Shown piece by piece: positions 7,580 through 30,656 of a stretch of DNA of 33,997 nt. The first letter of the stretch is position 1; every line of letters starts with the position of its first letter. The position numbers and the translations under genes are program-made. Below the pieces are notes generated by a model that worked only from the letters and a program-made list of their open reading frames with translations, did no database searches and was not told the origin of the DNA. Origin of the DNA: a virus; IMG/VR virus record IMGVR_UViG_3300028198_000009, positions 1 to 33,997 of that record. One strand, given 5' to 3'.

Positions 7580-9892
7580 ATGGCTGAAATAACAAGATAC
7601 CAAAGATCTGAAGCTGCCCAGGCAGTTCCAACATCAAAAGCGGAAGCTAATAATTTAAACTCTTTAGCGGATCGGCTGCGTCAATTTTCCAATAGACAGT
7701 TTGAAAGAGAAGCTCAACAAGCTGGTATCGAAGGAAAGCAAGCTGGTCAATTAGCTGCCAGTGGAAAGATTGGTGGTTTAGATCTCAGTGATAACTCAAC
7801 AATTAGATCCAGGGCATTTAACTCTGGTGCTCAACTCGCTCACGCAGCTCAGATCAAAATCGACATCAATGAAAATATCTCCAGGCTAAAAATGGAGAAC
7901 CCTTACGATGTTGCAGCCTTTCAAGAATTATCAGCTGGCTATAAAAAAGGCTTATTAGCTGAAGTAGATCCAAGCATGAGAGCTTTAGCAGAAGCTGATC
8001 TTAATACCGCCATTTCTAATGGAACGATAAGAATTGGTGAAGATTTCATGAAGAAAGAGAAAAAAGCTCAAGTTGCTACGATTACTCAAGGTGTTGAGTT
8101 AGCAAAAGAGTTGACGCTGCAATTATTTGCTAAAGGCGATATTGAAGGTGGTGAAGATCAGATGATGCAAATAAAAGCTGCATTAGAAGAGGGTGTCACT
8201 TTAAACCTTTTAGATCAAGCTGAAGTTAATACAACTTTAAATAATTTATCAGAATTGGCTGACTATGAATTAATCCTGGGCACATTTAAAAGAGAACTCG
8301 AAGAAAATGGTGTTGAAGCTGCAGAAGCTGCTATAGATGCTTTTGAATCATATGAAGATGAGTTAATTGATGATGAAGGCAATGAAAGAAGCATTGAGCC
8401 AAAGACTAAAAGAACCATCATCACTAAGATGAATACAATGATCAATAGAGTTAAAGCTGATGAAAATGCTGACGCAGCTGCAGCAAAAGCTTTAAAAAAT
8501 GCAGAAAAAGCTATATTAAAAGATTCAGTACAAGATCATATAAAAGCTTTAGATCTTAATCAATTTCCAGAAACACTTGAAGATCTAAAACTAAAACTTG
8601 CTGGATTTCCAGATTTGCAGTCTGACTTAGCAAAAGCAGAATCAGAAGCTGCAGCAGCAGCTGTTTATATGAAGCTTGCTCCATCGACAATGGAATTTGT
8701 GATTCAGGATTTAAGTAGCAAGAAAGATCTATCACCCGCTAAAGCACAATTATTAGAGCGCTATAAAAAGATCCATGCCGATACAAAGGCCAGGATGAAT
8801 ACAGATATATTAAATCTTGGAATAGATCATGGAATTATTGAAGGTGTTGATGTTTTAGATTTTTCAAATGGCGAACAAATTAAAAAAAGAGTATTGCAGT
8901 ATCGACAACTTCAAGATCATTATGGAGTATCTGGAGGATCCCCATTAACGCAATTAGAAAGAGATAATTTAATAACTAGGTTAGAAGATACAGAAACAGG
9001 ATCAAGAGAGAAGTTGGTCATTTTATCAAGTCTTGTTGATGGCTTTGGTAAAGCGTCTGTAGATCTATTTGAAAGCATGTTTGAAGATGCTTCTCCAGAA
9101 TACATAATGGTTGGCGAATTGATAAGTGAATCAAGATCAACTGGAAATTTTGGCTTAGTCAAAGTCGGTGAAAATATTTTATTAGGTTTAGAAGCGATAG
9201 ACAAAGGATTAGTTGAAGTAGATCCAGATCTCAAAAATATAATCTTAACTTCAATGGGAAATGCTGCTGGTCAAAACCCAGATTACACGCAAATGGTAAT
9301 TCGGTCAGCAACAGCACTGTACGTTAATAAACACAGAGGTAACTCAGATAACGTGCCAGATATGCAAAAAGAAGTAGAGAAATTTATCACTCAAATAACT
9401 GGCGGTGTATTAGAAATAAATGGATCAAAACTTATTGCACCAAATAGAAACATTAAGACAGAAATGTTTGAAGATAAGTTAAAGGAATTAGAGCGTAATG
9501 ATCTTAATGCTATGGGTGGTGTTGATCTTAACCGATACACAGCTACGGAAGCATTAGAAATGGTTAAAGATGGTAGGTTTGTAAGTGTGGGCCAAGGTGA
9601 GTATGTTGTCATTATTAATGAAGGTCCACCAGCAGAAGAATTAAGAAACCAATATGGTGAAACATTTATCTTTAATTATGATACTAATTGGGGTGATAAA
9701 AAATCCTGGACTGAAGATGGTTTTGCTGAAGATTATAAAAAAATAGAAGCAGAAGCAAAAGCTAAAAAAGAAGCTGAAAAAGAAGCCAAAAAACTTGAAG
9801 ATGAAAAAATACCGACAATTGAAGAGCAGAAAAAGCTTATTGATCCAGAACAAAAAATAGGGATATTTACAGTCCCGGATGATGAGGATTAA
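7580..9892 (+). CDS. Large internal virion protein, predicted coiled coil
   Basis: 770 residues, almost entirely helical and charged. The N-terminus (ITRYQRSEAAQAVPTSKAEA) and the early segment NRQFEREAQQAGIEGKQAGQ are typical of T7 gp15-like internal core proteins. The last 70 residues are a Lys/Glu-rich coiled coil (EAEAKAKKEAEKEAKKLEDE). It probably stacks on the portal inside the head and is ejected into the periplasm at infection. I see no enzyme motif. It starts one base after the previous stop and ends just before the next ATG, so the internal proteins are one translational unit. Confidence 0.75.
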   Translation: MAEITRYQRSEAAQAVPTSKAEANNLNSLADRLRQFSNRQFEREAQQAGIEGKQAGQLAASGKIGGLDLSDNSTIRSRAFNSGAQLAHAAQIKIDINENISRLKMENPYDVAAFQELSAGYKKGLLAEVDPSMRALAEADLNTAISNGTIRIGEDFMKKEKKAQVATITQGVELAKELTLQLFAKGDIEGGEDQMMQIKAALEEGVTLNLLDQAEVNTTLNNLSELADYELILGTFKRELEENGVEAAEAAIDAFESYEDELIDDEGNERSIEPKTKRTIITKMNTMINRVKADENADAAAAKALKNAEKAILKDSVQDHIKALDLNQFPETLEDLKLKLAGFPDLQSDLAKAESEAAAAAVYMKLAPSTMEFVIQDLSSKKDLSPAKAQLLERYKKIHADTKARMNTDILNLGIDHGIIEGVDVLDFSNGEQIKKRVLQYRQLQDHYGVSGGSPLTQLERDNLITRLEDTETGSREKLVILSSLVDGFGKASVDLFESMFEDASPEYIMVGELISESRSTGNFGLVKVGENILLGLEAIDKGLVEVDPDLKNIILTSMGNAAGQNPDYTQMVIRSATALYVNKHRGNSDNVPDMQKEVEKFITQITGGVLEINGSKLIAPNRNIKTEMFEDKLKELERNDLNAMGGVDLNRYTATEALEMVKDGRFVSVGQGEYVVIINEGPPAEELRNQYGETFIFNYDTNWGDKKSWTEDGFAEDYKKIEAEAKAKKEAEKEAKKLEDEKIPTIEEQKKLIDPEQKIGIFTVPDDED

Positions 9893-12874
9893 ATGGGTGT
9901 ACTAGATTCCGGATCCAGCGATTATCTCAATAGATTGAGCTTTCATTCTGGGCCAGCTCCCGATGTCGCTGGTCTGGAAACGACTTTTAAAGATAACTTT
10001 ACTGCGTCCGCAGAAAACTTTGCATATCACTTTAAATCAACTTCTGAAGAAGAAGTAATGACTGATTTAATTAATAGTCAATTAGATCTTGTGTATCAAG
10101 CTCATAACCCAGATATGCGCTTTAATCCTCAAGTTTCGTCAGAAGGTTTAAAGTCGCCAAAAAGAGATCTGACAACTATAGAAAAAACTTTGTTATTAAC
10201 ATCACCTCTTACAAGAACAGCGGTAATGGCAAACATGGTTGATGGTAAGTCATTAAATGATTTTGGTTATGAAGGTAAAAAACAAAGATTTAAAGATCTA
10301 ACTTTCGATATTTTAAAGTTGCAAGAACAGTTTCCAGATATGGGACTTAAAACTTGGGATCAGATTATGCAAGATGCCCAAAAAGAATCGACAAGATTAA
10401 AAGAAGTAATGTCCCAGGTATCAAATAACAGAACATGGGGTGGTGTTGCTGGAATGCTTACTGGTGTTATGAAAGAAGCTTTAACTGATCCAATTGTTTT
10501 AGCATCAATGATGTTTGGAACTTCTAAAATTGCTGGCGGTACAAAATCAATGAATGCTATGAAAGCATTTTATACAGAATTTTTAATTGGCGCTGGATCT
10601 GAAACAGTAATACAACCTTTTGTAATGGATTGGTCAGCTAAATTAGAAACACCTTGGGATCTAAAAGATGCAGCAGTCACAATATTAACAGTCGGTGGAT
10701 TTGCTGGTGTTACTAGAGCCGGTGGTAGTTATGTTGTTGATTTAATTGATGCAGCAAAAGCAGCAAAAAAATTAAGGGCCCAGGGAGAAAATGTAAAAGC
10801 ACAAACTCTGGAGAATTACATTGATCTATACAACGGAGCTCCGCCAGCTAGAAGTGTATTAGAGCAAGATGCACAACTTAAAGCTATTAATGATATTCAA
10901 AAAGCAATTGATGATGGCAAGTCTGGTCCAGAACTACAACTTGAAATAGAAAGAATAGCAAAAGAAACTGGTATAGATGCAGCAAAGTTAAATACAAAAG
11001 ATTTAGATCTTTCAATAGATCAGCCAAAAGTTGAAATTAATGTTGTAGGCGATCGATACGATGGCGGGTTAGTAGTTACAACTAAATCTGGCGGAAAAGT
11101 TATTGATGAACAAATTCTTGGTGGTGAGCAAGCTTATTTGTACAAAGGAAAAGAATACGATGACTATGATAATTTTGCAGCAGCAATAGCAAAAGATAAC
11201 AATATCGATGCTTCACTAATAAAGAGAACAACAGATGAAGGAGAAGTGGCTCCAGAAATATCTATAAATGTTGTAGGAGATAGATATGATGGTGGAGTAG
11301 TTGTTTCTACAAAAGTGGGAGGCAAACAAGTAGATGAACAAATATTAGATGGTGAGCAAAACTATTTATGGAAAGGTAAAGAGTATGAAGATTATAACTC
11401 GTTTAGTAAAGCAGTTGCTGATGAGTATGGAGAAAGTCCATTATTTGTAAAAAGAACTACAGACGAAGGAGAGCCAGCTCCAGAAATATTAGTGAATGTA
11501 GTTGGAGATCGATATGATGGTGGATTAGTTGTAACTACAACAGCAGCTGGAAAAAAAATAGATGAGCAAATTCTTGATGGCGAACAGGCATATACATTTA
11601 AAGGAAAAGAATATGATAGTTATGATGGTTATGCAAAAGCTGTAGCAGAAGAATATGGAACAAGTCCACTTTTTGTAAAGCGTTCAACTAACGATGATTT
11701 TGGCATTGAACCAGAAATTGGCAAACCAGTAAGACTGCAAGATCTTGATCAAGCTGGAATAGGAAAAGCTGAAGATAAATTTAGACAGCCAGGAATCGAT
11801 CAAAATTTAACTGCAAATCAATACCATAAAAAAGCTGGGCCAAATCAAAAAGAGTTAGATACTTTAGGTAAAGAGTTAGGTGATGATTTTGGCGATAAAG
11901 TTTTGTTTCTTTCACCAGGACTAAAAGATTTAGAAAAAGTAAAGGACAAAATATTAAGAAAAAAGTACGATACTACTGGTGAATTAACAGATGTTATTAG
12001 ATCTGGTTTTGCAGTAAAAAATTATGAGGATGTACTTGAGTTAATTACCAGGATCTCAAATAAATATGAAGTATTAGATGAAGGCTTCATAATGAATGGA
12101 GCTGGCTATTATGATCATAAAATATTAATAAGATTTAAAAATGGCCAGATCGGAGAAATTCAGCTTTGGGAGCCACATTTATTAGCAGCAAAAGAAGGTC
12201 GTGGATATGTAAGAAAACACTTTACTAAAGATATGAAAGATTACATATCTGGATATGATGTACCTTTAAGAAAAGATAGTGGTCATAATATTTATGACAA
12301 ACAAAAGAAATTATTTGATGAAGATGGAAACATTAAAAACCAAAAGAAATATGATGAGCTTAATAAAAAGCAAGATAAAGTTTATTCAGCAGCAAGTCTA
12401 TCTGCAAACCCTTCCTGGAAATCAGCTTTAGAGAGTATTCTTCCAGACTCTAAGATCTCTAAAGGAGAAGCTGGCTCCCAATCTCCTCTCTCAGCTGCAC
12501 GACGTATTACAAATCCTAGTAAGCGTCCATCTGGAGGTGATACGACTACTGCTGGTCGCCCTTCCCAAGATACCCAATCTAGTACATCTGACTCATTAAA
12601 CATAAATTCCACCTCTAAACCCATTATAACAGGTGCTACTGAGCGTATCTTATTAAATGATCCAGAGATGGCTCGGATTATAGAGGAAGATTTTATTGAA
12701 GTGCAGCGCATTATTGATGAAGCCGGTGATGAATTTGAGATCCCATTCACTGTAATTGATGATCTTGGCAATGAAACGACTGTTATTCAATCAATTAAAA
12801 AAGTTTTTAACGATATAGAGAACGATGAAAATTCTTTAGCTTCTCTAAATAAATGTATGGGGAGGGCAGCGTAA
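9893..12874 (+). CDS. Internal virion protein with triple repeat and RelA/SpoT-like domain
   Basis: 993 residues. The N-terminal part (to about 300) looks like an ejection protein, with a hydrophobic helical region around residues 180-285 (GVAGMLTGVMKEALTDP, AVTILTVGGFAGVT). Residues 378-605 are three consecutive 76-residue repeats, each starting near NVVGDRYDGG. Residues about 650-810 resemble a RelA/SpoT-type nucleotidyltransferase: LRKKYDTTGELTDVIRSGF has the RxKxxxT and DxxR elements, and GQIGEIQLWEPHLLAAKEG has the ExQ element. A Ser/Thr/Pro-rich linker (about 860-915) leads to an acidic C-terminal helix. A virion protein carrying an enzyme-like domain fits the polyvalent ejected-protein idea. 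Catalysis is not shown. Confidence 0.72.
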   Translation: MGVLDSGSSDYLNRLSFHSGPAPDVAGLETTFKDNFTASAENFAYHFKSTSEEEVMTDLINSQLDLVYQAHNPDMRFNPQVSSEGLKSPKRDLTTIEKTLLLTSPLTRTAVMANMVDGKSLNDFGYEGKKQRFKDLTFDILKLQEQFPDMGLKTWDQIMQDAQKESTRLKEVMSQVSNNRTWGGVAGMLTGVMKEALTDPIVLASMMFGTSKIAGGTKSMNAMKAFYTEFLIGAGSETVIQPFVMDWSAKLETPWDLKDAAVTILTVGGFAGVTRAGGSYVVDLIDAAKAAKKLRAQGENVKAQTLENYIDLYNGAPPARSVLEQDAQLKAINDIQKAIDDGKSGPELQLEIERIAKETGIDAAKLNTKDLDLSIDQPKVEINVVGDRYDGGLVVTTKSGGKVIDEQILGGEQAYLYKGKEYDDYDNFAAAIAKDNNIDASLIKRTTDEGEVAPEISINVVGDRYDGGVVVSTKVGGKQVDEQILDGEQNYLWKGKEYEDYNSFSKAVADEYGESPLFVKRTTDEGEPAPEILVNVVGDRYDGGLVVTTTAAGKKIDEQILDGEQAYTFKGKEYDSYDGYAKAVAEEYGTSPLFVKRSTNDDFGIEPEIGKPVRLQDLDQAGIGKAEDKFRQPGIDQNLTANQYHKKAGPNQKELDTLGKELGDDFGDKVLFLSPGLKDLEKVKDKILRKKYDTTGELTDVIRSGFAVKNYEDVLELITRISNKYEVLDEGFIMNGAGYYDHKILIRFKNGQIGEIQLWEPHLLAAKEGRGYVRKHFTKDMKDYISGYDVPLRKDSGHNIYDKQKKLFDEDGNIKNQKKYDELNKKQDKVYSAASLSANPSWKSALESILPDSKISKGEAGSQSPLSAARRITNPSKRPSGGDTTTAGRPSQDTQSSTSDSLNINSTSKPIITGATERILLNDPEMARIIEEDFIEVQRIIDEAGDEFEIPFTVIDDLGNETTVIQSIKKVFNDIENDENSLASLNKCMGRAA
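11024..11707 (+). repeat. Three tandem 228-base repeats inside the 993-residue virion gene
   Basis: Units start at 11024, 11252 and 11480 with an exact 228-base period and no gaps. Each encodes 76 residues of the form NVVGDRYDGG, then a GK..DEQIL.GEQ stretch, then KGKEY.DY and a final KR(T/S)T. The DNA copies differ at many third positions while the protein is conserved, so the duplication is old and held by selection. The third unit differs most at its end. Confidence 0.9.
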
Positions 12875-15297
12875 TGGCTACATTAATTCAATGTATTGGT
12901 GAAGCGACACAAGCTAGAGAAATTCCAGAACAACTAGCAGCAGAATTAGAAGCAGCTTTAGATAAGTTTATTGCTAAATACATTAAAGAAGGTTTAGATC
13001 CTAGTGCAGCTAAAAGAATGGCACAAGCAGATGTTATTGAATCAAAAATGGCAGAGCTTGCGATGCAAAAAAGACAAAAAGCATTACAGATTATTAAAGT
13101 TAATGAAGCTATAAAAGAAGCGGGCAGTCATTCAGTAAGCTTTAGACGTGGTGTTGTGTCAATTATTACTAAAGATATTCAAGATATATTAAGTGAAACT
13201 AATATTGATTTTAGAGCAAAAACAGTATTAGGCCAATTTCACATGAAGATCGCTAAAGGTATGGAAGCTTTTAGAACCAAGACGCTAGGATTGCGCCAGG
13301 ATATTGCTGGAATGCGAGATGTTGTTCGAGAAATAGAAGGTGTAAATACTGGCAACAAAATAGCAAAAGAGTTTGCCCAGGAGGTCGCTGGTGTATTTGA
13401 AGATGCTAGGCTGCGTTTTAATCGTGCTGGTGGAAATATTAGAAAACTAGAAAACTGGTGGCCCCATTGGTGGGATCCAAAATTAATAGCAAAGATTAGC
13501 GAAGAAGATTTTATTACTCAATTTGGATCTAAGCTAGATCGTGAAAGAATGATCAATGATCTAGGTATAGCAATGGATGATGCTGAAATAAAGATTTTGC
13601 TAGGTAATGCTTACAACGATATAAAAACAAATGGCCTACACAGTTTAAAACCGACTATGACAGGTGGTGGTAAGAAAATGGCTAATAGACACCAGGAACA
13701 CAGAGTCTTGGTATTTAAGAATGTAGATGATTGGTTAGATCTAAATGATCAATATGGTCGTCCAGATTTATATACAACAATGATGGATCATGTGTCTAAT
13801 ATGAGTCATGAGATTTCTATGATGGAGATCCTTGGTCCAAACCCACAAGCCACTTTTAACTACCTTAGACAAATGGCACAAAAACAAGGCGCTTCAGAAC
13901 CAGGACTAGCGTCTTTAGATGCTTTATGGAATGTTGCGTCTGGCAAGGTTAATAACACTGTATGGGTTGCTGGTGCTGATTTCATGAAAACAACCAGGAG
14001 TTTATTAGTTGCTGCTCAATTAGGCGGTGCCTTCCTATCTTCATTGAACGATCCCTGGATTGCAAGAATGACAGCTAAGATGAATGGCATTCCAACAATG
14101 AAAGTTTTTTCAGAAGCACTAAAACAATTTAACCCGGCCAACAAAGCAGATCGTATAGCAGCTGTAGAAATGGGATTAGTTGCAGAAGCCTGGACAACTA
14201 GAGCGTTAGCAGCTAACAGATTTACAGAACTTACTGGAGCTGACTTTGCAGCTAAAGCAGCTGACTTTACAATGAGAGCTTCATTGCTATCTCCTTGGAC
14301 TGACGCATTAAGAAAAGGCTATGGTATGGCTACTTTCTCTCAAATGGCTATAGACTCTGCAAAATCATTTAAAAATCTACCTAAAAAACGTCAAGAAGCT
14401 TTAACCAGGTACAAGATTACTCCAGAAGATTGGGATCTAATTAGATCTACGAATCCTATTAATCATAAAGGAGCCAAGTATTGGTCCATAGAAAATATGA
14501 TGAAGAGAACAGATCTTGATCAAAAAGTTAAAGATAGACTTACAACTAAAGTACATGAGATGGTATTAAGTGAAGTGGATCAAGCTGTTCTTATGCCAGA
14601 TTTTAGATCTCAAGCTATTGCTACCCTAGGAGCTAGACGAGGTGGTTTAGGAGAAGTTACCAGGACTGTTGCAATGTATAAATCTTTCCCTGTCTTGATG
14701 ATTACTAAACAATTATATAGAGGAGCATCACAAAGGGCCCTAGGATCAAAGATACAATACTTAGCAGAGCTTTCTATTGGTTTGCTAGTGTTTGGTGCCA
14801 TTGCGCTCCAAGCGAAGGAAATAGCGAAAGGTAGGAACCCAAGAGATATGACAGAGCCAAAGTTTTGGGCAGCTGCTCATCTACAAGGCGGTGGCCTAGG
14901 TATCTTTGGCGATTTCTTACATTCTGATCAAAATAGATATGGAAATACACTTACAAAAACAATAATGGGACCAGGGTTTGGACTTGCAGATGATATAGCA
15001 AAATTAACAATAGGAAATCTGCAACAATTTATTGCTGGAGAAGATACAAATATTAGCGCAGATATGATACAATTCCTACGACGTTATACACCTGGAAGTT
15101 CGGTGTGGTTTATAAGAGGAGTTTATGAACGTGCGATATTAGATCAATTAATGAATATGACAGATCCAAAATCTTACAAAAAATTTAGAGATCAAATGAA
15201 GAAAAGAGAAAAAGAATATGGACAAGGATATTGGTGGAAGCCAGGAAGTATGACACCAGAATCTGCCCCGGATATGTCAAAAACAGGAGTCTTATAA
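12874..15297 (+). CDS. Largest-class internal virion (DNA ejection) protein
   Basis: 807 residues from the ATG at 12874. This start is preferred over 12853 because GGGGAGGG at 12859-12866 is ideally spaced for it, and because the ATG overlaps the previous stop (TAATG). The protein is mostly helical. A segment near residues 195-205 is WWPHWWDP, and GARRGGLGEVTRTVAMYKSF near residue 590 precedes a hydrophobic stretch, LAELSIGLLVFGAIAL. This pattern occurs in large internal proteins of marine and BPP-1-like podoviruses, corresponding to T7 gp16. It is likely part of the trans-envelope ejection channel. I see no lytic transglycosylase motif. Confidence 0.75.
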   Translation: MATLIQCIGEATQAREIPEQLAAELEAALDKFIAKYIKEGLDPSAAKRMAQADVIESKMAELAMQKRQKALQIIKVNEAIKEAGSHSVSFRRGVVSIITKDIQDILSETNIDFRAKTVLGQFHMKIAKGMEAFRTKTLGLRQDIAGMRDVVREIEGVNTGNKIAKEFAQEVAGVFEDARLRFNRAGGNIRKLENWWPHWWDPKLIAKISEEDFITQFGSKLDRERMINDLGIAMDDAEIKILLGNAYNDIKTNGLHSLKPTMTGGGKKMANRHQEHRVLVFKNVDDWLDLNDQYGRPDLYTTMMDHVSNMSHEISMMEILGPNPQATFNYLRQMAQKQGASEPGLASLDALWNVASGKVNNTVWVAGADFMKTTRSLLVAAQLGGAFLSSLNDPWIARMTAKMNGIPTMKVFSEALKQFNPANKADRIAAVEMGLVAEAWTTRALAANRFTELTGADFAAKAADFTMRASLLSPWTDALRKGYGMATFSQMAIDSAKSFKNLPKKRQEALTRYKITPEDWDLIRSTNPINHKGAKYWSIENMMKRTDLDQKVKDRLTTKVHEMVLSEVDQAVLMPDFRSQAIATLGARRGGLGEVTRTVAMYKSFPVLMITKQLYRGASQRALGSKIQYLAELSIGLLVFGAIALQAKEIAKGRNPRDMTEPKFWAAAHLQGGGLGIFGDFLHSDQNRYGNTLTKTIMGPGFGLADDIAKLTIGNLQQFIAGEDTNISADMIQFLRRYTPGSSVWFIRGVYERAILDQLMNMTDPKSYKKFRDQMKKREKEYGQGYWWKPGSMTPESAPDMSKTGVL

Positions 15298-16974: not shown

Positions 16975-18366
16975 ATGGCAAAAGTTAAAATTCAAGGACA
17001 CGCTTCAGGAACAGGTATTCTGACAGTTACTGCTCCAAATACGAGTACGGATAGAACGATAACACTACCTGATGCTACAGCTACGATAGCAACAACTGCT
17101 GATGTAACTGCTGCTACTTTTAACCCTGATGCTGCACAAGTATTTAACGAATCAAGTGCTGATGTAGACTTTAGAGTTGAATCTAATACTAATGCTAATG
17201 CATTATTTGTTGATGGTAGGGGCGGTGCTGTTGGTATTGCTGTTGTTCCTTCGTATTGGAATGAAACTTATCGAACAGCATTACAAGTTGCTCACTCAGG
17301 TTCTCTATCAGGACATCTTTCTACGAATATTGTTGATTTAAGTAATAATGCTTTTTATGATGGTGGTGATACTCGTTGGGAGTATATCAACTCTTCCGAA
17401 GAAGCCTCACAAATTGAGCTGGGTTCAAACGGTGCGATTGATTTTAAAGTAGCACCATCAGGCACAGCAGACGCAGCAGTTACTTGGACTACTGCTATGA
17501 CTATTGATAATAGTGGTTATGTTCTTATAGGAACAACAGTTAATAATCTTTTAGGTCACGGTGCATCAAACTCTATTAACACAGATAGCAACGGACACGC
17601 GGTCGCATTAACTGTTAATAATAACTCTTATAGCGAAGCAGGAGGAGGAGCACTTCCTATTGGATGTCTAAGAAGTAACAGTTCCGCTTATGCTTTTGCT
17701 GGATTTTATTCAGGTAATGGAACAACTGCATTTGCCGATAAAGAGTTTGAATTCCGCGGTGATGGTCAAGCGTATTGCGAAGGTTCTTGGAATGGTGGTG
17801 GTGCTGATTATGCAGAATACTTTGAATGGAAAGATGGTAATGCTTCAGATGAAGATAGACGAGGTATATCAGTTGTATTAGATGGTGATAAGATTAGACC
17901 AGCAGTAGAAGGTGAAACACCTATTGGTGTTATCTCTGGTAATCCTTCGGCTGTCGGTGATTCTGCTTCCAACAAGTGGGCTGGTAAATATACTCGTGAT
18001 GATTTTGGCACTTATATCTTTGAAGAATACACCCTAACCGAATGGGAAGCACAAGAAGTTAATAATGATGGTGACACAATTACTGTTAAAAAGTCATTTG
18101 AAACCGACAGGATTCCAGCAAGTGAAACTGCACCAGCAGACGCTACTGTTATTTCGGTAGATGATAATGGTAAAACTTTTATGCGTAGAACACTTAACCC
18201 AGATTGGAATCCAGATACTACCTATGTATCTCGTGAAGATAGAAAGGAGTGGGATACAGTTGGTTTAATGGGTAAGTTAAGAATACGCAAAGGACAACCG
18301 ACAGGTTCAAATTGGATAAAAATGCGTGATGTGTCAGATGCTGTTGAAGAATGGCTAATTAAATAG
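16975..18366 (+). CDS. Tail fibre/spike protein with peptidase-G2-like C-terminal domain
   Basis: 463 residues with a good ribosome site (GGAGATAT before ATG). The N-terminus (GTGILTVTAPNTSTDRTITL, then PDATATIATTADV) is the short beta module common in marine phage fibres. The C-terminal third begins GGADYAEYFEWKDGN, continues DRRGISVVLDGDKI and IGVISGNPSAVGD, and ends in a helical segment. This fits the peptidase G2 / intramolecular-chaperone family (PF11962), which assists trimer folding and then cuts itself off. The probable job is receptor binding with self-processing. It is the first gene of a GATC-free block. Confidence 0.82.
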   Translation: MAKVKIQGHASGTGILTVTAPNTSTDRTITLPDATATIATTADVTAATFNPDAAQVFNESSADVDFRVESNTNANALFVDGRGGAVGIAVVPSYWNETYRTALQVAHSGSLSGHLSTNIVDLSNNAFYDGGDTRWEYINSSEEASQIELGSNGAIDFKVAPSGTADAAVTWTTAMTIDNSGYVLIGTTVNNLLGHGASNSINTDSNGHAVALTVNNNSYSEAGGGALPIGCLRSNSSAYAFAGFYSGNGTTAFADKEFEFRGDGQAYCEGSWNGGGADYAEYFEWKDGNASDEDRRGISVVLDGDKIRPAVEGETPIGVISGNPSAVGDSASNKWAGKYTRDDFGTYIFEEYTLTEWEAQEVNNDGDTITVKKSFETDRIPASETAPADATVISVDDNGKTFMRRTLNPDWNPDTTYVSREDRKEWDTVGLMGKLRIRKGQPTGSNWIKMRDVSDAVEEWLIK

Positions 18367-21406: not shown

Positions 21407-22560
21407 TGAAACATTTATTAGAGTTTTGTAATACAGACGTTCAGCGTAAAAAAATAGAGCTATATATAAAGTATGGCAATATGCGAAAGGCTGGTGAAGA
21501 GCTTGGTGTTTCTCATCAAAATATCTCTAAAACAATTAAGACTATACAAAAGCGAGCAGCTGTTAAGGGTATTGCTCCGGAAGCTGATTTAAATCACGTT
21601 GCTCCCCAGGGATTTAATGTTAAAGGAACATCTACTTTATATGATGAAGATGGCCAGGTAAAGATCCAATGGGTAAAGACGCAGCAAGATGGATTAGATC
21701 CAGAGGAAGTTGCTAATGTTTTTAATGAAATGTTGGCAGATTTTTCTGCTGCGCCTGTGTCCCCTCCTAAAGAAGTTGAAGCAGATCTCCTTGCAGTTTA
21801 TCCAATTGGAGATCCTCATATTGGAATGCTGGCCCATAGAGAGGAAGCTGGAGAGGACTTTGATTTAAAGATTGCTACTCGTGATTTACAAAAAGCTACT
21901 AAGATGTTAGTTGAGAGATCACCTAATACTGACGAGGCAGTCGTGCTGGGCCTCGGTGATTTCTATCATTCTGATAACCCACAAAATAGAACAGAGCGAG
22001 GAGGTAATGCTTTAGACGTAGATGGTAGATGGCACAAGGTTTTAAAGGTTGGTATTAACTTAATGATCGAGCTTGTTATGTCCGCACTAGCTAAACACAA
22101 GCATGTCACAGTTAAAAATATTTGTGGAAATCATGACTCCAATTCTGCCCATTTCTTGGGAATTGCAATGGAAGCTTACTTTAGAAATGAACCTAGGGTA
22201 ACAATTGACACTTCACCATCTAAGTTTTGGTATTTCGAATTTGGAAAAATACTAATTGGCAGCACGCATGGTGACACTGCTAAACCAGAAAAGCTCCCAG
22301 GAATTATGGCTGCAGACCAGCCAGAAAGATGGGGCAAAGCAAATTTTAGATATTGGTACACTGGCCATATCCATAACAAACAAGCAATGGAATTTCCTGG
22401 TGTACTCTGGGAGTCATTTAGAACTTTAGCTGCTAAAGATGCTTGGCATTCTTCCATGGGATATAGATCCTCGCGCGACATGAGCTGCATAATTCATCAT
22501 AAAGAATATGGAGAGATCGGAAGGAATACTGCTTCTTTACAACTTATAAGATCTCAGTAA
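21406..22560 (+). CDS. HTH-metallophosphoesterase fusion protein
   Basis: 384 residues. Residues 1-50 are a helix-turn-helix of the sigma-factor type (GNMRKAGEELGVSHQNISKT). The C-terminal domain is a calcineurin-like phosphoesterase with all main metal motifs: GDPHIG at 135-140, GD at 184-185, GNHD at 241-244, THGD at 297-300 and GHIH at 320-323. Such fusions occur in many phages, but the substrate is not established; DNA or nucleotide is plausible given the HTH. It starts in the holin stop (TAATG). Its 3' end overlaps the integrase gene, on the opposite strand, by 17 bases. Confidence 0.85.
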   Translation: MKHLLEFCNTDVQRKKIELYIKYGNMRKAGEELGVSHQNISKTIKTIQKRAAVKGIAPEADLNHVAPQGFNVKGTSTLYDEDGQVKIQWVKTQQDGLDPEEVANVFNEMLADFSAAPVSPPKEVEADLLAVYPIGDPHIGMLAHREEAGEDFDLKIATRDLQKATKMLVERSPNTDEAVVLGLGDFYHSDNPQNRTERGGNALDVDGRWHKVLKVGINLMIELVMSALAKHKHVTVKNICGNHDSNSAHFLGIAMEAYFRNEPRVTIDTSPSKFWYFEFGKILIGSTHGDTAKPEKLPGIMAADQPERWGKANFRYWYTGHIHNKQAMEFPGVLWESFRTLAAKDAWHSSMGYRSSRDMSCIIHHKEYGEIGRNTASLQLIRSQ

Positions 22561-23686
22561 CCCAATCCAGGGACTTCTCAATATAAGCAGCTTTGTTTGT
22601 TATATCTGTTGGAGATCCGTAAAGCTCTGATACTGAACTGGCCCAACCACCTAATTCTTTTCTCATGTACTCTGGACATTCTACTGATCTTAACCTGGTA
22701 GCTAGTGTGTGGCGAAACGAATGTGAGGTTGGAGATCCTGGTCCAAGTATTCTATGTAGCCTATTATTTACATTTGCATTAGCAGTATCTTTACCACGAT
22801 CTTTCTTTAGCCATCTTGGAAAAATCCACTCTTCTGTAAGATCTAAAGATTTTGCTGCAGCCAGGGAAGATCCGACCAGGGGAATGATCCTTTGTGAGCT
22901 TCTATTCTTTAGCCTACGCATAGGATTCTTGTGCAAGATGACATGTGGTATTCGGCCCAGGCTTATGTCACGAGAAGCTAATCCTACTGCTTCTGAAGAT
23001 CTCATGCCAGTGTCAATTAATAATCCTATGATCTGTTCAGTTTTGTTATCAGATCCTCCAACAACATCTCTTAATAAATCTAATTGATCTGAGCTAAAAT
23101 CATCTCGCTCTTCACTATCTAATCCTAGGTTTGGTATGTTTAATTTTCGGAAACGATGGAAGTGATCAATCTCATGTTCTTCATAAACTAAATTAAAAAC
23201 AGCACAGATCGAATTTAATTCTCGACGTACAGAAGTTGTCTTGACAGATCTTAAACGATCTCTTATAAAACTATTGATCTCAACTTTAGAATAATCATGT
23301 GGTGGATGATCTCCTAAATTATCAGTTAAATATCCTATGTTCCTAACGACATCATCATAAGCTTTTGTAGTTTTATCTAATCCTTTTAGTTCAGCATAAG
23401 CTTCAATAAAATCAGAAGCAGCTTCTAACTCTTTTTGTTTTTTTCTAAATGGATCTATACCTAAAGCAAACTGTTTTCTATATTCTCTTACTTGATCTCG
23501 TGCTTCAGCTAATTCTATTTCTGGATATTTGCCCAGGCTTTTAGAAGTTTTTTTAAAACGAAATCTCCATGTTTTTCCACCACCTTCAGCAGCTGGACCA
23601 ACCCTTAAATACAAGCCATCATAATCTGAAACCCATTGCGGTTTGTCAGTAGGCTTTATAGATTTAATTTTACGATCATTTAACAT
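22544..23686 (-). CDS. int: Tyrosine integrase (P4-like)
   Basis: 380 residues. The N-terminus (KIKSIKPTDKPQWVSDYDGL) is the DUF4102-type arm-binding domain of P4-like integrases. The catalytic domain shows R229 in IDTGMRSSEA, H322 and R325 in SHSFRHTLATRL, Trp348 in place of the second His (LGGWASS), and the likely nucleophile Y356 in VSELYGS. It recombines attP with the bacterial tRNA site. A 10-base repeat thought to be its arm site lies just upstream of the start, so the protein may repress its own gene. The 3' end overlaps the convergent phosphoesterase gene. Confidence 0.95.
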   Translation of the reverse strand: MLNDRKIKSIKPTDKPQWVSDYDGLYLRVGPAAEGGGKTWRFRFKKTSKSLGKYPEIELAEARDQVREYRKQFALGIDPFRKKQKELEAASDFIEAYAELKGLDKTTKAYDDVVRNIGYLTDNLGDHPPHDYSKVEINSFIRDRLRSVKTTSVRRELNSICAVFNLVYEEHEIDHFHRFRKLNIPNLGLDSEERDDFSSDQLDLLRDVVGGSDNKTEQIIGLLIDTGMRSSEAVGLASRDISLGRIPHVILHKNPMRRLKNRSSQRIIPLVGSSLAAAKSLDLTEEWIFPRWLKKDRGKDTANANVNNRLHRILGPGSPTSHSFRHTLATRLRSVECPEYMRKELGGWASSVSELYGSPTDITNKAAYIEKSLDWVTEIL

Positions 23687-29881: not shown

Positions 29882-30280
29882 TTATGAGGTTACTAATGTT
29901 ATCAATTCTGCTGCACGTTTATTATTAATCTCTTGACCATCCTTTGCAGCTCTGTATAAATACGTTGTCATTCTTGCAGCTTGAGTTGGCGATAAAATAA
30001 TATCAGCTTCAGCTTCAGCTTCTTCAACCAGGCGTAAGCAATCTTCTAATGTATCGTCGTCGACTGCAGTATTTTCTCCAGTGTCTGAAACCAGCCAACT
30101 CAGCGATACACCAAGGAACTTGGCTAATCCTTCCAGTTGATCCAGTGTTGGTTTCGATCGTCCAGTAAAATAATGTCCGATTGCTCCGCGAGTATTTTTA
30201 CCCATTGAAGGTGCAATATCTGTTTGCGTTAATTTATTTTCAGCCATTTTACTTTTGGCCCGTGAAATCCAGCTTCCCAT
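29882..30280 (-). CDS. Prophage repressor (CI-like, Xre HTH, no protease domain)
   Basis: 132 residues from the ATG at 30280; ATG at 30286 is an alternative but only three bases from GGAG. The Xre-type helix-turn-helix is ENKLTQTDIAPSMGKNTRGA followed by YFTGRSKPTLDQLEGLAKFL. Residues after 75 form an acidic helical region and a C-terminal helix, not the S24 self-cleavage domain of lambda CI. It is divergent from the YdaS/Cro-like gene across a palindromic operator, the normal arrangement for a lysogeny switch. Without S24, induction would need an antirepressor or another route. Confidence 0.85.
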   Translation of the reverse strand: MGSWISRAKSKMAENKLTQTDIAPSMGKNTRGAIGHYFTGRSKPTLDQLEGLAKFLGVSLSWLVSDTGENTAVDDDTLEDCLRLVEEAEAEADIILSPTQAARMTTYLYRAAKDGQEINNKRAAELITLVTS

Positions 30281-30286
30281 AAGCAT

Positions 30287-30416
30287 TATCTCCGTTTAAA
30301 TTTGTAGCTCTCTAATGCTATATTTTACCAGATATGTAGCAATTTTAGAATAATGTTTGTATCTTATTGAGCAATATGATACAATTTGTCACAATTTATT
30401 GGGAGATTATGAAAAA
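30287..30416. promoter_or_regulatory. Immunity switch region between repressor and Cro-like gene
   Basis: A 28-base palindrome at 30357-30384 has arms TTGTATC and GATACAA plus an inner ATTG/CAAT pair, with one mismatched pair. Its ends coincide with -35 (TTGTAT, 30357-30362) and -10 (TACAAT, 30380-30385) boxes 17 bases apart for rightward transcription. For the repressor, TTCTAA and TAAAAT on the minus strand (30345-30350 and 30322-30327) are also 17 bases apart. TGTAGC and GCTATA motifs at about 30302-30341 are further half-site candidates. Confidence 0.75.
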
Positions 30417-30656
30417 ATGACATTAATTGAGTACGGAAGGAAAGAAAAAGCACTCGGCAACTACAGATCCCTTAATCAGATCTGGGTAAGTATAGCACAA
30501 GAGCTTGGAGTATCGACTCCGTTGGTAAAGCTTTGGGCGAATAAGCAAAGAAGAGTAGCTGATTTACATGTGATCAATCTTGAGAAAGCAACCCAGGGCG
30601 AAGTATCTCGGCATCATACCAGGCCAGATATATATCCACCGGAGGAAGCACAATGA
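30417..30656 (+). CDS. YdaS/Cro-like transcription regulator
   Basis: 79 residues from the ATG at 30417, chosen over TTG at 30357, which lies inside the operator. GGGAG is at 30401-30405. A four-codon frame (ATG AAA AAA TGA) overlaps the start and might modulate translation. The HTH is VSIAQELGVSTPLVKLWANK, followed by NLEKATQGEVSRHHTRPDIY. The IE-x-AT-x-G-x-V-x-R...RPDxYP ending is the hallmark of YdaS-type Cro proteins. It should turn off repressor synthesis during lytic growth. It overlaps the next gene by four bases. Confidence 0.85.
   Translation: MTLIEYGRKEKALGNYRSLNQIWVSIAQELGVSTPLVKLWANKQRRVADLHVINLEKATQGEVSRHHTRPDIYPPEEAQ

What the first reader, a model, noticed from the sequence alone, without database searches (positions are those of the whole stretch)
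9893..12874. Ejected virion protein with a RelA/SpoT-like domain
The sequence shows a large internal virion protein whose residues about 650-810 carry LRKKYDTTGELTDVIRSGF and GEIQLWEPHLLAAKEG. These match in order and spacing the RxKxxx(S/T), DxxR and ExQ elements of RelA/SpoT-type nucleotidyltransferases. Known: polyvalent phage proteins that enter the cell with the DNA can carry effector domains, including RelA/SpoT-like ones. Inference: the phage may inject a nucleotide-signalling or tRNA-modifying enzyme at the first moment of infection. The domain may be inactive.
Basis: partly seen in the sequence, partly recalled or inferred. Interest (0 to 1): 0.72.

Follow-up and report, generated by a model that had tools for sequence, protein, structure and literature searches.

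The report
Phage ejection protein carrying alarmone-synthetase domain

Summary
The domain is real. In the 993-aa ORF at 9893-12874, residues about 648-853 form a complete RelA/SpoT-type nucleotidyltransferase (SYNTH) domain. A 26-sequence alignment folds with pLDDT 94.3 and pTM 0.89, and every top PDB match is a RelA/SpoT enzyme. The best is Tas1/Apk1, a secreted (p)ppApp synthetase (Foldseek E=1.8e-9; profile search E=3.6e-13). Catalytic positions K678, D700, R703, Y739, E755 and Q757 are invariant in 26 homologues. Single-sequence family searches missed it.

RxKxxx(S/T) was misplaced: the true basic motif is K678/K686, and its leading R is absent, as in Tas1.

The gene sits in the ejection-protein slot of an epsilon15/phiV10-like temperate podophage. 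Homologues without the domain exist, and the domain appears to move by recombination. No immunity gene lies next to it, unlike the MuF-linked Apk2 toxins. The acceptor motif (DxK) matches neither the (p)ppGpp (SxH) nor the (p)ppApp (GxN) pattern, so the product is unknown.

Ejection and catalysis are inferred, not shown. RelA/SpoT domains in phage polyvalent proteins were reported in 2017, so this is a new variant of a known kind.

The parts
9893..12874 (+). 993-aa gp16-position ejection-type protein with a RelA/SpoT-like domain (P0001)
   Evidence: Open ORF; syntenic with phiV10p19 / epsilon15 gp16; N-terminus homologous to a Vibrio podophage protein
9893..10762 (+). Residues 1-290, conserved N-terminal region with two moderately hydrophobic Gly-rich stretches (about 185-215 and 256-285)
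   Evidence: 28-75% identity to 11 relatives; profile hits a ZCVPP1 616-aa protein E=1.8e-44 and an SI2 792-aa protein E=1.4e-5, both without the RelA-like domain; hydropathy
11036..11692 (+). Residues 382-600: three 76-aa repeats (starts 382, 458, 534) in the exchangeable middle slot
   Evidence: Repeat starts; isolated segment matches PF15633 Tox-ART-HYD1 at 27.2 bits, gathering score 25; relatives carry other modules here
11834..12451 (+). Residues 648-853: RelA/SpoT-type SYNTH domain, Apk1/Tas1-like
   Evidence: A4 profile vs PDB Tas1 E=3.6e-13; AF2 pLDDT 94.3, pTM 0.89; Foldseek Tas1 E=1.8e-9, then SAS/Rel enzymes
11924..11950 (+). K678...K686, phosphate-binding basic motif (equivalent by alignment and spacing to FaRel2 K66/K74)
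   Evidence: K678 26/26; K686 K 25/26, R 1/26; FaRel2 roles from PMC11782079
11990..12001 (+). D700-x-x-R703, Mg-binding Asp and donor-adenine Arg (Apk1 R330)
   Evidence: 26/26 both; Apk1/SaEAS active-site residues from PMC12691689
12107..12121 (+). Y739 (acceptor base) and D741-x-K743, an atypical syn3 motif
   Evidence: Y 26/26, D 25/26, K 22/26; SxH in ppGpp enzymes and GxN in ppApp enzymes
12155..12163 (+). E755-x-Q757, catalytic Glu and adenine-contact Gln (Apk1 E382 and the Gln two residues on)
   Evidence: 26/26 both
12548..12568 (+). TAGRPSQ (886-892), conserved short motif downstream of the domain
   Evidence: TAG[RK]x[SA]Q or close variant in most homologues, amid an unalignable linker
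12647..12871 (+). C-terminal tail (about 919-993) with a near-terminal Cys
   Evidence: Similar tails ending in a Cys motif in relatives; similarity to the domain-less homologues is not significant
12853..15297 (+). Next gene, phrog_684 virion structural protein; its likely true start is the in-frame ATG at about 12874, so no immunity gene intervenes
   Evidence: phrog_684 E=2e-180; 39% identity to a ZCVPP1 'structural protein', about 31% to phiV10 'virion structural protein'; same adjacency in 16 loci
7580..9892 (+). Upstream neighbour, 770 aa, at the position of phiV10p18 (epsilon15 gp15)
   Evidence: phrog_9153 E=9.1e-13; synteny

Best explanation
P0001 is a gp16-position ejection protein of an epsilon15/phiV10-like temperate podophage, with an extra cargo domain inserted before its C-terminal tail. 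The cargo (residues 648-853) is a RelA/SpoT-fold pyrophosphotransferase whose nearest solved relative is the (p)ppApp synthetase Tas1/Apk1. Proposed mechanism: the protein is packaged in the head, leaves with the core proteins, and its C-terminal part reaches the cytoplasm. There the domain moves pyrophosphate from ATP to the 3'-OH of a purine nucleotide, most likely an adenosine nucleotide. A few copies would tilt host purine and ATP metabolism and growth control early in infection, or hinder rival phages. Shown by computation: fold, family, catalytic residues, gene order, modularity, no adjacent immunity gene. Inferred: packaging, delivery, activity, substrate and benefit.
For: Profile match to Tas1 E=3.1e-9 and 3.6e-13 over nearly the whole domain. 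Predicted structure pLDDT 94.3; all top PDB matches are RelA/SpoT enzymes, Tas1 first at TM 0.67-0.70. Catalytic positions invariant in 26 homologues down to 26% identity. Purifying selection: domain dN/dS 0.085-0.48 in eight pairs. Gene order as in phiV10, where epsilon15 gp15 and gp17/16 are listed as parts of the packaging/injection device (PMC12391199) and ejected internal proteins are established for epsilon15 (PMC8954989). In pairs L007/L009 and L002/L012 the domain is far less diverged synonymously than the rest of the same gene, consistent with a cargo module moved by recombination. Related phage toxins (MuF-Apk2) make (p)ppApp in vitro (PMC12226406).
Against: No activity, virion proteomics or infection data exist for this phage or any close relative found here. 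The syn3 position is DxK, not GxN or SxH, and Apk1 N370 aligns with K743, so (p)ppApp is not assured. No immunity gene is adjacent, although the known toxic members have one; this suggests weak or restrained activity, or a different product. The protein has no significant sequence match to phiV10p19 itself, so that link is synteny only.
Confidence: 0.6

Rival explanations
1. The domain is catalytic but uses another acceptor, for example the tRNA 3'-CCA end as in FaRel2/CapRel, or makes (p)ppGpp.
For: The acceptor motif (syn3 DxK) and syn4 (LW) fit neither the (p)ppApp nor the (p)ppGpp pattern. tRNA pyrophosphorylation by toxSAS enzymes is established (PMC11782079).
Against: Tas1 is by far the best sequence and structure match; tRNA-modifying toxSAS structures are not among the listed hits. 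The D+3 Arg and the lost first Arg of RxK are shared with Tas1.
Confidence: 0.22
2. The domain is a catalytically weak or dead remnant kept for structure, DNA binding or packaging.
For: No adjacent immunity gene; apparent loss of the ATP-contacting Asn (N370 to K743) and of the first Arg of RxK.
Against: Mg-binding Asp, catalytic Glu, Gln, Lys, Arg and acceptor Tyr are all invariant; Tas1 also lacks the first Arg and is active; homologous ejection-type proteins do without the domain, so it is not needed structurally.
Confidence: 0.13
3. The protein is a phage toxin whose benefit is to the lysogen, killing competitors through released particles (polymorphic-toxin logic as proposed for MuF toxins), rather than an aid to infection.
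For: MuF-Apk2 and Bxa prophage toxins have antibacterial activity (PMC12226406, PMC11699363). The window phage is temperate (integrase; HTH repressor-like protein).
Against: No toxin-immunity arrangement next to the gene in 16 loci. The integral position in the ejection operon suggests use in every infection.
Confidence: 0.15

Closest known systems
Tas1/Apk1 (T6SS (p)ppApp synthetase, PDB 6ox6)
   Same: Best sequence-profile and structural match; D-x-x-R, E-x-Q and acceptor Tyr; no first Arg in the RxK motif; effector carried at the end of a delivery protein
   Different: PAAR/T6SS delivery and Tis1 immunity there; here a podophage ejection-type protein, syn3 DxK instead of GxN, W after the ExQ strand, no adjacent immunity gene
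Apk2 MuF-linked prophage toxins (PMC12226406)
   Same: Phage head-module protein carrying an Apk1-like synthetase domain
   Different: MuF minor capsid protein, exclusive (p)ppApp synthesis shown in vitro, iapK and aph1 immunity genes; here a gp16-position protein with neither
RelA/SpoT domains in phage polyvalent proteins (Iyer et al. 2017, PMC5512222)
   Same: RelA/SpoT domain together with exchangeable modules such as ddrB-ParB and ART in large phage proteins
   Different: That study names Spirochaete and epsilonproteobacterial prophages and MuF fusions; the passages read do not mention the podophage ejection operon, and its assignments are sequence-based without activity data
Exported alarmone synthetases (SaEAS, PMC12691689)
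   Same: Apk1-like SYNTH domains attached to export or delivery modules
   Different: That survey of 1,369 homologues lists Sec, WXG/LXG, XopAD, MuF, DUF4157 and Rhs/PAAR, not podophage ejection proteins
phiV10p19 / epsilon15 gp16
   Same: Gene position between phiV10p18 and the virion structural protein phiV10p20
   Different: 600 aa in phiV10, no RelA-like domain, no significant sequence similarity detected

Membership tests
RelA/SpoT (SYNTH) nucleotidyltransferases | SYNTH fold: central beta sheet flanked by helices | tested here: met
   AF2 model pLDDT 94.3 with five main strands; all top Foldseek PDB hits are RelA/SpoT enzymes
RelA/SpoT (SYNTH) nucleotidyltransferases | Mg-binding Asp and catalytic Glu with the ExQ motif | tested here: met
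   D700, E755, Q757 invariant in 26/26
RelA/SpoT (SYNTH) nucleotidyltransferases | RxKxxxSxxxK phosphate-binding motif | tested here: inconclusive
   Both Lys present (K678 26/26; K686 K 25, R 1) but first Arg is Gly in 24/26 and Ser is not conserved; Tas1 likewise lacks the Arg
RelA/SpoT (SYNTH) nucleotidyltransferases | Pyrophosphotransferase activity | not testable with these tools
   Needs biochemistry
Pfam PF04607 RelA_SpoT | Score above the curated cut-off | tested here: not met
   No hit for the window domain; only 2 of 26 relatives weakly, best E=0.047
Adenosine 3'-pyrophosphokinases (Apk1/Apk2) | Closest sequence relationship to Apk1 | tested here: met
   Only significant PDB hit, E=3.6e-13
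Adenosine 3'-pyrophosphokinases (Apk1/Apk2) | syn3 GxN signature | tested here: not met
   DxK: D 25/26, K 22/26 (signature)
Adenosine 3'-pyrophosphokinases (Apk1/Apk2) | Adjacent immunity genes (iapK, aph1 or Tis1) | tested here: not met
   Next large ORF follows directly in 16 loci; no alarmone-hydrolase family matched the 10 further window ORFs scanned
Phage polyvalent proteins (Iyer 2017) | Several exchangeable effector-type domains in one large phage late-gene protein | tested here: met
   Middle slot varies: repeats, ddrB-ParB (PF18763), ART-PolyVal-like (below cut-off in L007), ParB-like by inspection; domain exchange
Podophage ejection (internal virion) proteins | Position in the ejection operon | tested here: met
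   Same gene order as phiV10
Podophage ejection (internal virion) proteins | Presence in virion and delivery to the cell | not testable with these tools
   Needs virion proteomics and a translocation assay

The most novel reading that the evidence does not exclude
Podophages eject a working RelA/SpoT-type enzyme of an undescribed subfamily (DxK acceptor motif, no adjacent immunity gene) that makes a product other than (p)ppGpp or (p)ppApp, as a routine first step of infection.
Probability: 0.2. Interest if true: 0.8.

Novelty: new variant of a known kind. Interest (0 to 1): 0.55.

Why it matters
If the domain is active on delivery, the phage alters the host nucleotide pool before any phage gene is transcribed. 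It would extend Apk1-like alarmone synthetases to another delivery route, the podophage ejectosome, apparently without an adjacent immunity gene. It would also give a clean test of what an injected alarmone synthetase does for a phage, and of what the acceptor motif specifies. The case also shows that a whole catalytic domain can be missed by single-sequence searches of Pfam, PHROGs, NCBIfam and PADLOC, so such cargo may be more common than annotation suggests.

Tried and rejected
Single-sequence searches of the domain in Pfam, PHROGs, PADLOC, NCBIfam, INPHARED and PLSDB found no homologue (first rows); phmmer against PDB gave only weak hits, with Tas1 at E=0.58 and 1. Single-sequence AF2 was poor (pLDDT 44.7); the alignment was needed. 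Chance alphaRep and ribosomal-protein L23 matches were rejected as composition or short-segment hits. The isolated middle repeats match Tox-ART-HYD1 just above the cut-off (27.2 vs 25 bits) but below it in the full protein (21.5); not claimed as an ART. Homology of P0001 to phiV10p19 was not supported by BLASTP or a profile; only synteny is claimed. No match to an alarmone-hydrolase family among the 10 further window ORFs scanned. TTAGRPSQ was searched in IMG/VR in one codon spelling: the only real protein hit was this family. Whole-genome relatives could not be drawn because the window is a virus record. The Tas1 paper itself is not in the library, so its active-site details come from PMC12691689.

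Full report
What was checked. The ORF 9893-12874 encodes 993 aa with no interruption. The record is a 33,997-base virus contig with a head-tail connector (1135-2694, PF12236), an integrase (22544-23686, minus strand) and an exonuclease-type gene, and an HTH repressor-like protein (29882-30286, minus): a temperate podophage.

Finding the domain. Alone, the domain region has no homologue in Pfam, INPHARED or PLSDB, and Tas1 only at E=0.58-1 in PDB by phmmer. Relatives from IMG/VR and GTDB genomes gave alignments A2 (10 sequences), A3 and A4 (26 sequences). Profile searches of the PDB then gave Tas1 (6ox6) at E=3.1e-9 (A2) and E=3.6e-13 (A4), aligned from the first helix through the Gly-His-x2-Tyr element. 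Other alarmone synthetases appear below significance (2be3 at 0.54; SaSAS at 0.096). AlphaFold2 on A4 gave pLDDT 94.3, pTM 0.89. Foldseek against PDB: Tas1 E=1.8e-9 (TM 0.67/0.70), then small alarmone synthetases and Rel/RelA. Against viral models it matched RelA/SpoT, ART-PolyVal and DdrB annotated proteins of uncultured Caudovirales and a 'Tas1' siphovirus protein.

Catalytic residues. Invariant or nearly so in 26 sequences: K678, K686 (R in one), D700, R703, E730, Y739, D741, R747, E755, Q757, K767. Mapped to published active sites (FaRel2, PMC11782079; Apk1/SaEAS, PMC12691689): K678 and K686 hold phosphates, D700 binds Mg, R703/E755/Q757 form the donor-adenine site, and Y739 stacks on the acceptor. 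The acceptor motif syn3 is DxK, where (p)ppGpp synthetases have SxH and Apk2 enzymes GxN (PMC12226406). The substrate therefore cannot be assigned from sequence; published attempts to convert these motifs failed to change specificity, so the motif is only suggestive.

Context. The downstream gene (phrog_684) is 39% identical to a ZCVPP1 'structural protein' and about 31% to the phiV10 'virion structural protein'. phiV10 gene order is tail protein, two internal virion proteins, p18 (head protein), p19, p20 (virion structural); the window order is the same apart from one internal virion gene where phiV10 has two, placing P0001 at p19 (epsilon15 gp16). epsilon15 gp15 and gp17/16 are listed as parts of the packaging/injection device (PMC12391199) and epsilon15 is known to eject internal proteins (PMC8954989). 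The N-terminal 290 aa match a 616-aa ZCVPP1 protein (E=1.8e-44) and a 792-aa SI2 protein (E=1.4e-5) that have no RelA-like domain. The domain is thus an optional insert in an ejection-type protein.

Modularity and selection. Between relatives, the middle is the least conserved part (23-35% identity, against 39-63% for the domain, excluding L036 whose domain boundary was not found). The middle holds repeats in the window, ddrB-ParB in L004, a below-cut-off ART-PolyVal match in L007, and ParB-like segments seen by inspection in several others. Domain dN/dS is 0.085-0.48 in eight pairs. L007/L009 and L002/L012 have much lower synonymous divergence in the domain (0.54 and 0.39) than in the rest of the same gene (1.09 and 1.57), consistent with recombination of the module. 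In 16 loci, the window included, the next large ORF begins within tens of bases of the stop codon, leaving no room for an immunity gene. The domain is rare in sampled genomes: 5 of 385 in the class of L017 and 2 of 369 in the class of L016, each count including the seed genome. Three domain queries found no tblastn match in INPHARED.

Compared with what is known. RelA/SpoT domains in phage polyvalent proteins were described in 2017 (PMC5512222), with a predicted alarmone-like response. MuF-Apk2 prophage toxins make only (p)ppApp in vitro and have immunity genes (PMC12226406). A 2025 survey of Apk1-like exported synthetases lists MuF but not podophage ejection proteins (PMC12691689). What appears new here: this carrier, the missing immunity gene, and the acceptor-site signature. 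It works like, and is homologous to, Apk1; it is not filed as an Apk because the syn3 and immunity features were tested and not met.

Mechanism and limits. Shown by computation: fold, family, catalytic residues, gene order, modularity. Inferred: packaging, passage into the cytoplasm, activity, product, benefit. My weights for the product: adenosine alarmone about 0.45, other nucleotide or tRNA acceptor about 0.35, little or no activity about 0.15, remainder other.

Noticed in passing
window 12548-12568 (P0001 residues 886-892): Short motif TAG[RK]x[SA]Q lies 105-133 residues after the GE[IV]Q motif in most homologues, including otherwise unrelated large polyvalent proteins (L040, L022), amid an unalignable Ser/Thr-rich linker; absent from the domain-less homologues. 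It could be a cleavage or docking site.
   Followed up: partly
window 11036-11692 (P0001 residues 382-600): Three 76-aa protein-level repeats in the middle slot, not detected as DNA tandem repeats; the isolated segment matches PF15633 Tox-ART-HYD1 just above its cut-off.
   Followed up: partly
window 12830-12920: The protein ends in a Cys-containing tail (KCMGRAA) and the next protein begins with a similar Cys motif (MATLIQCIGEA); the same pairing recurs in several relatives.
   Followed up: no
window 12451-12548 (P0001 residues about 854-884): A second conserved segment right after the domain, P[DE]SxISxGE..SQ.P, seen in several relatives.
   Followed up: no
L004:7790-11002 and L015/L018: Alphaproteobacterial relatives combine ddrB-ParB (PF18763) and the RelA-like domain in one protein.
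   Followed up: partly
L023:4808-9736 and L050: Very divergent relatives: L023 (Akkermansia MAG, 1642 aa) pairs the domain with PBECR5 and ART-PolyVal and has GEII in place of GEIQ, and L050 has GEVI; possibly altered active sites.
   Followed up: no
window 30357-30656: Small ORF matching PF15943 YdaS (42.9 bits, cut-off 30), next to the repressor-like gene.
   Followed up: no
window 16975-18366: Tail-associated protein with a Peptidase_G2 (IMC autoproteolytic) domain.
   Followed up: no
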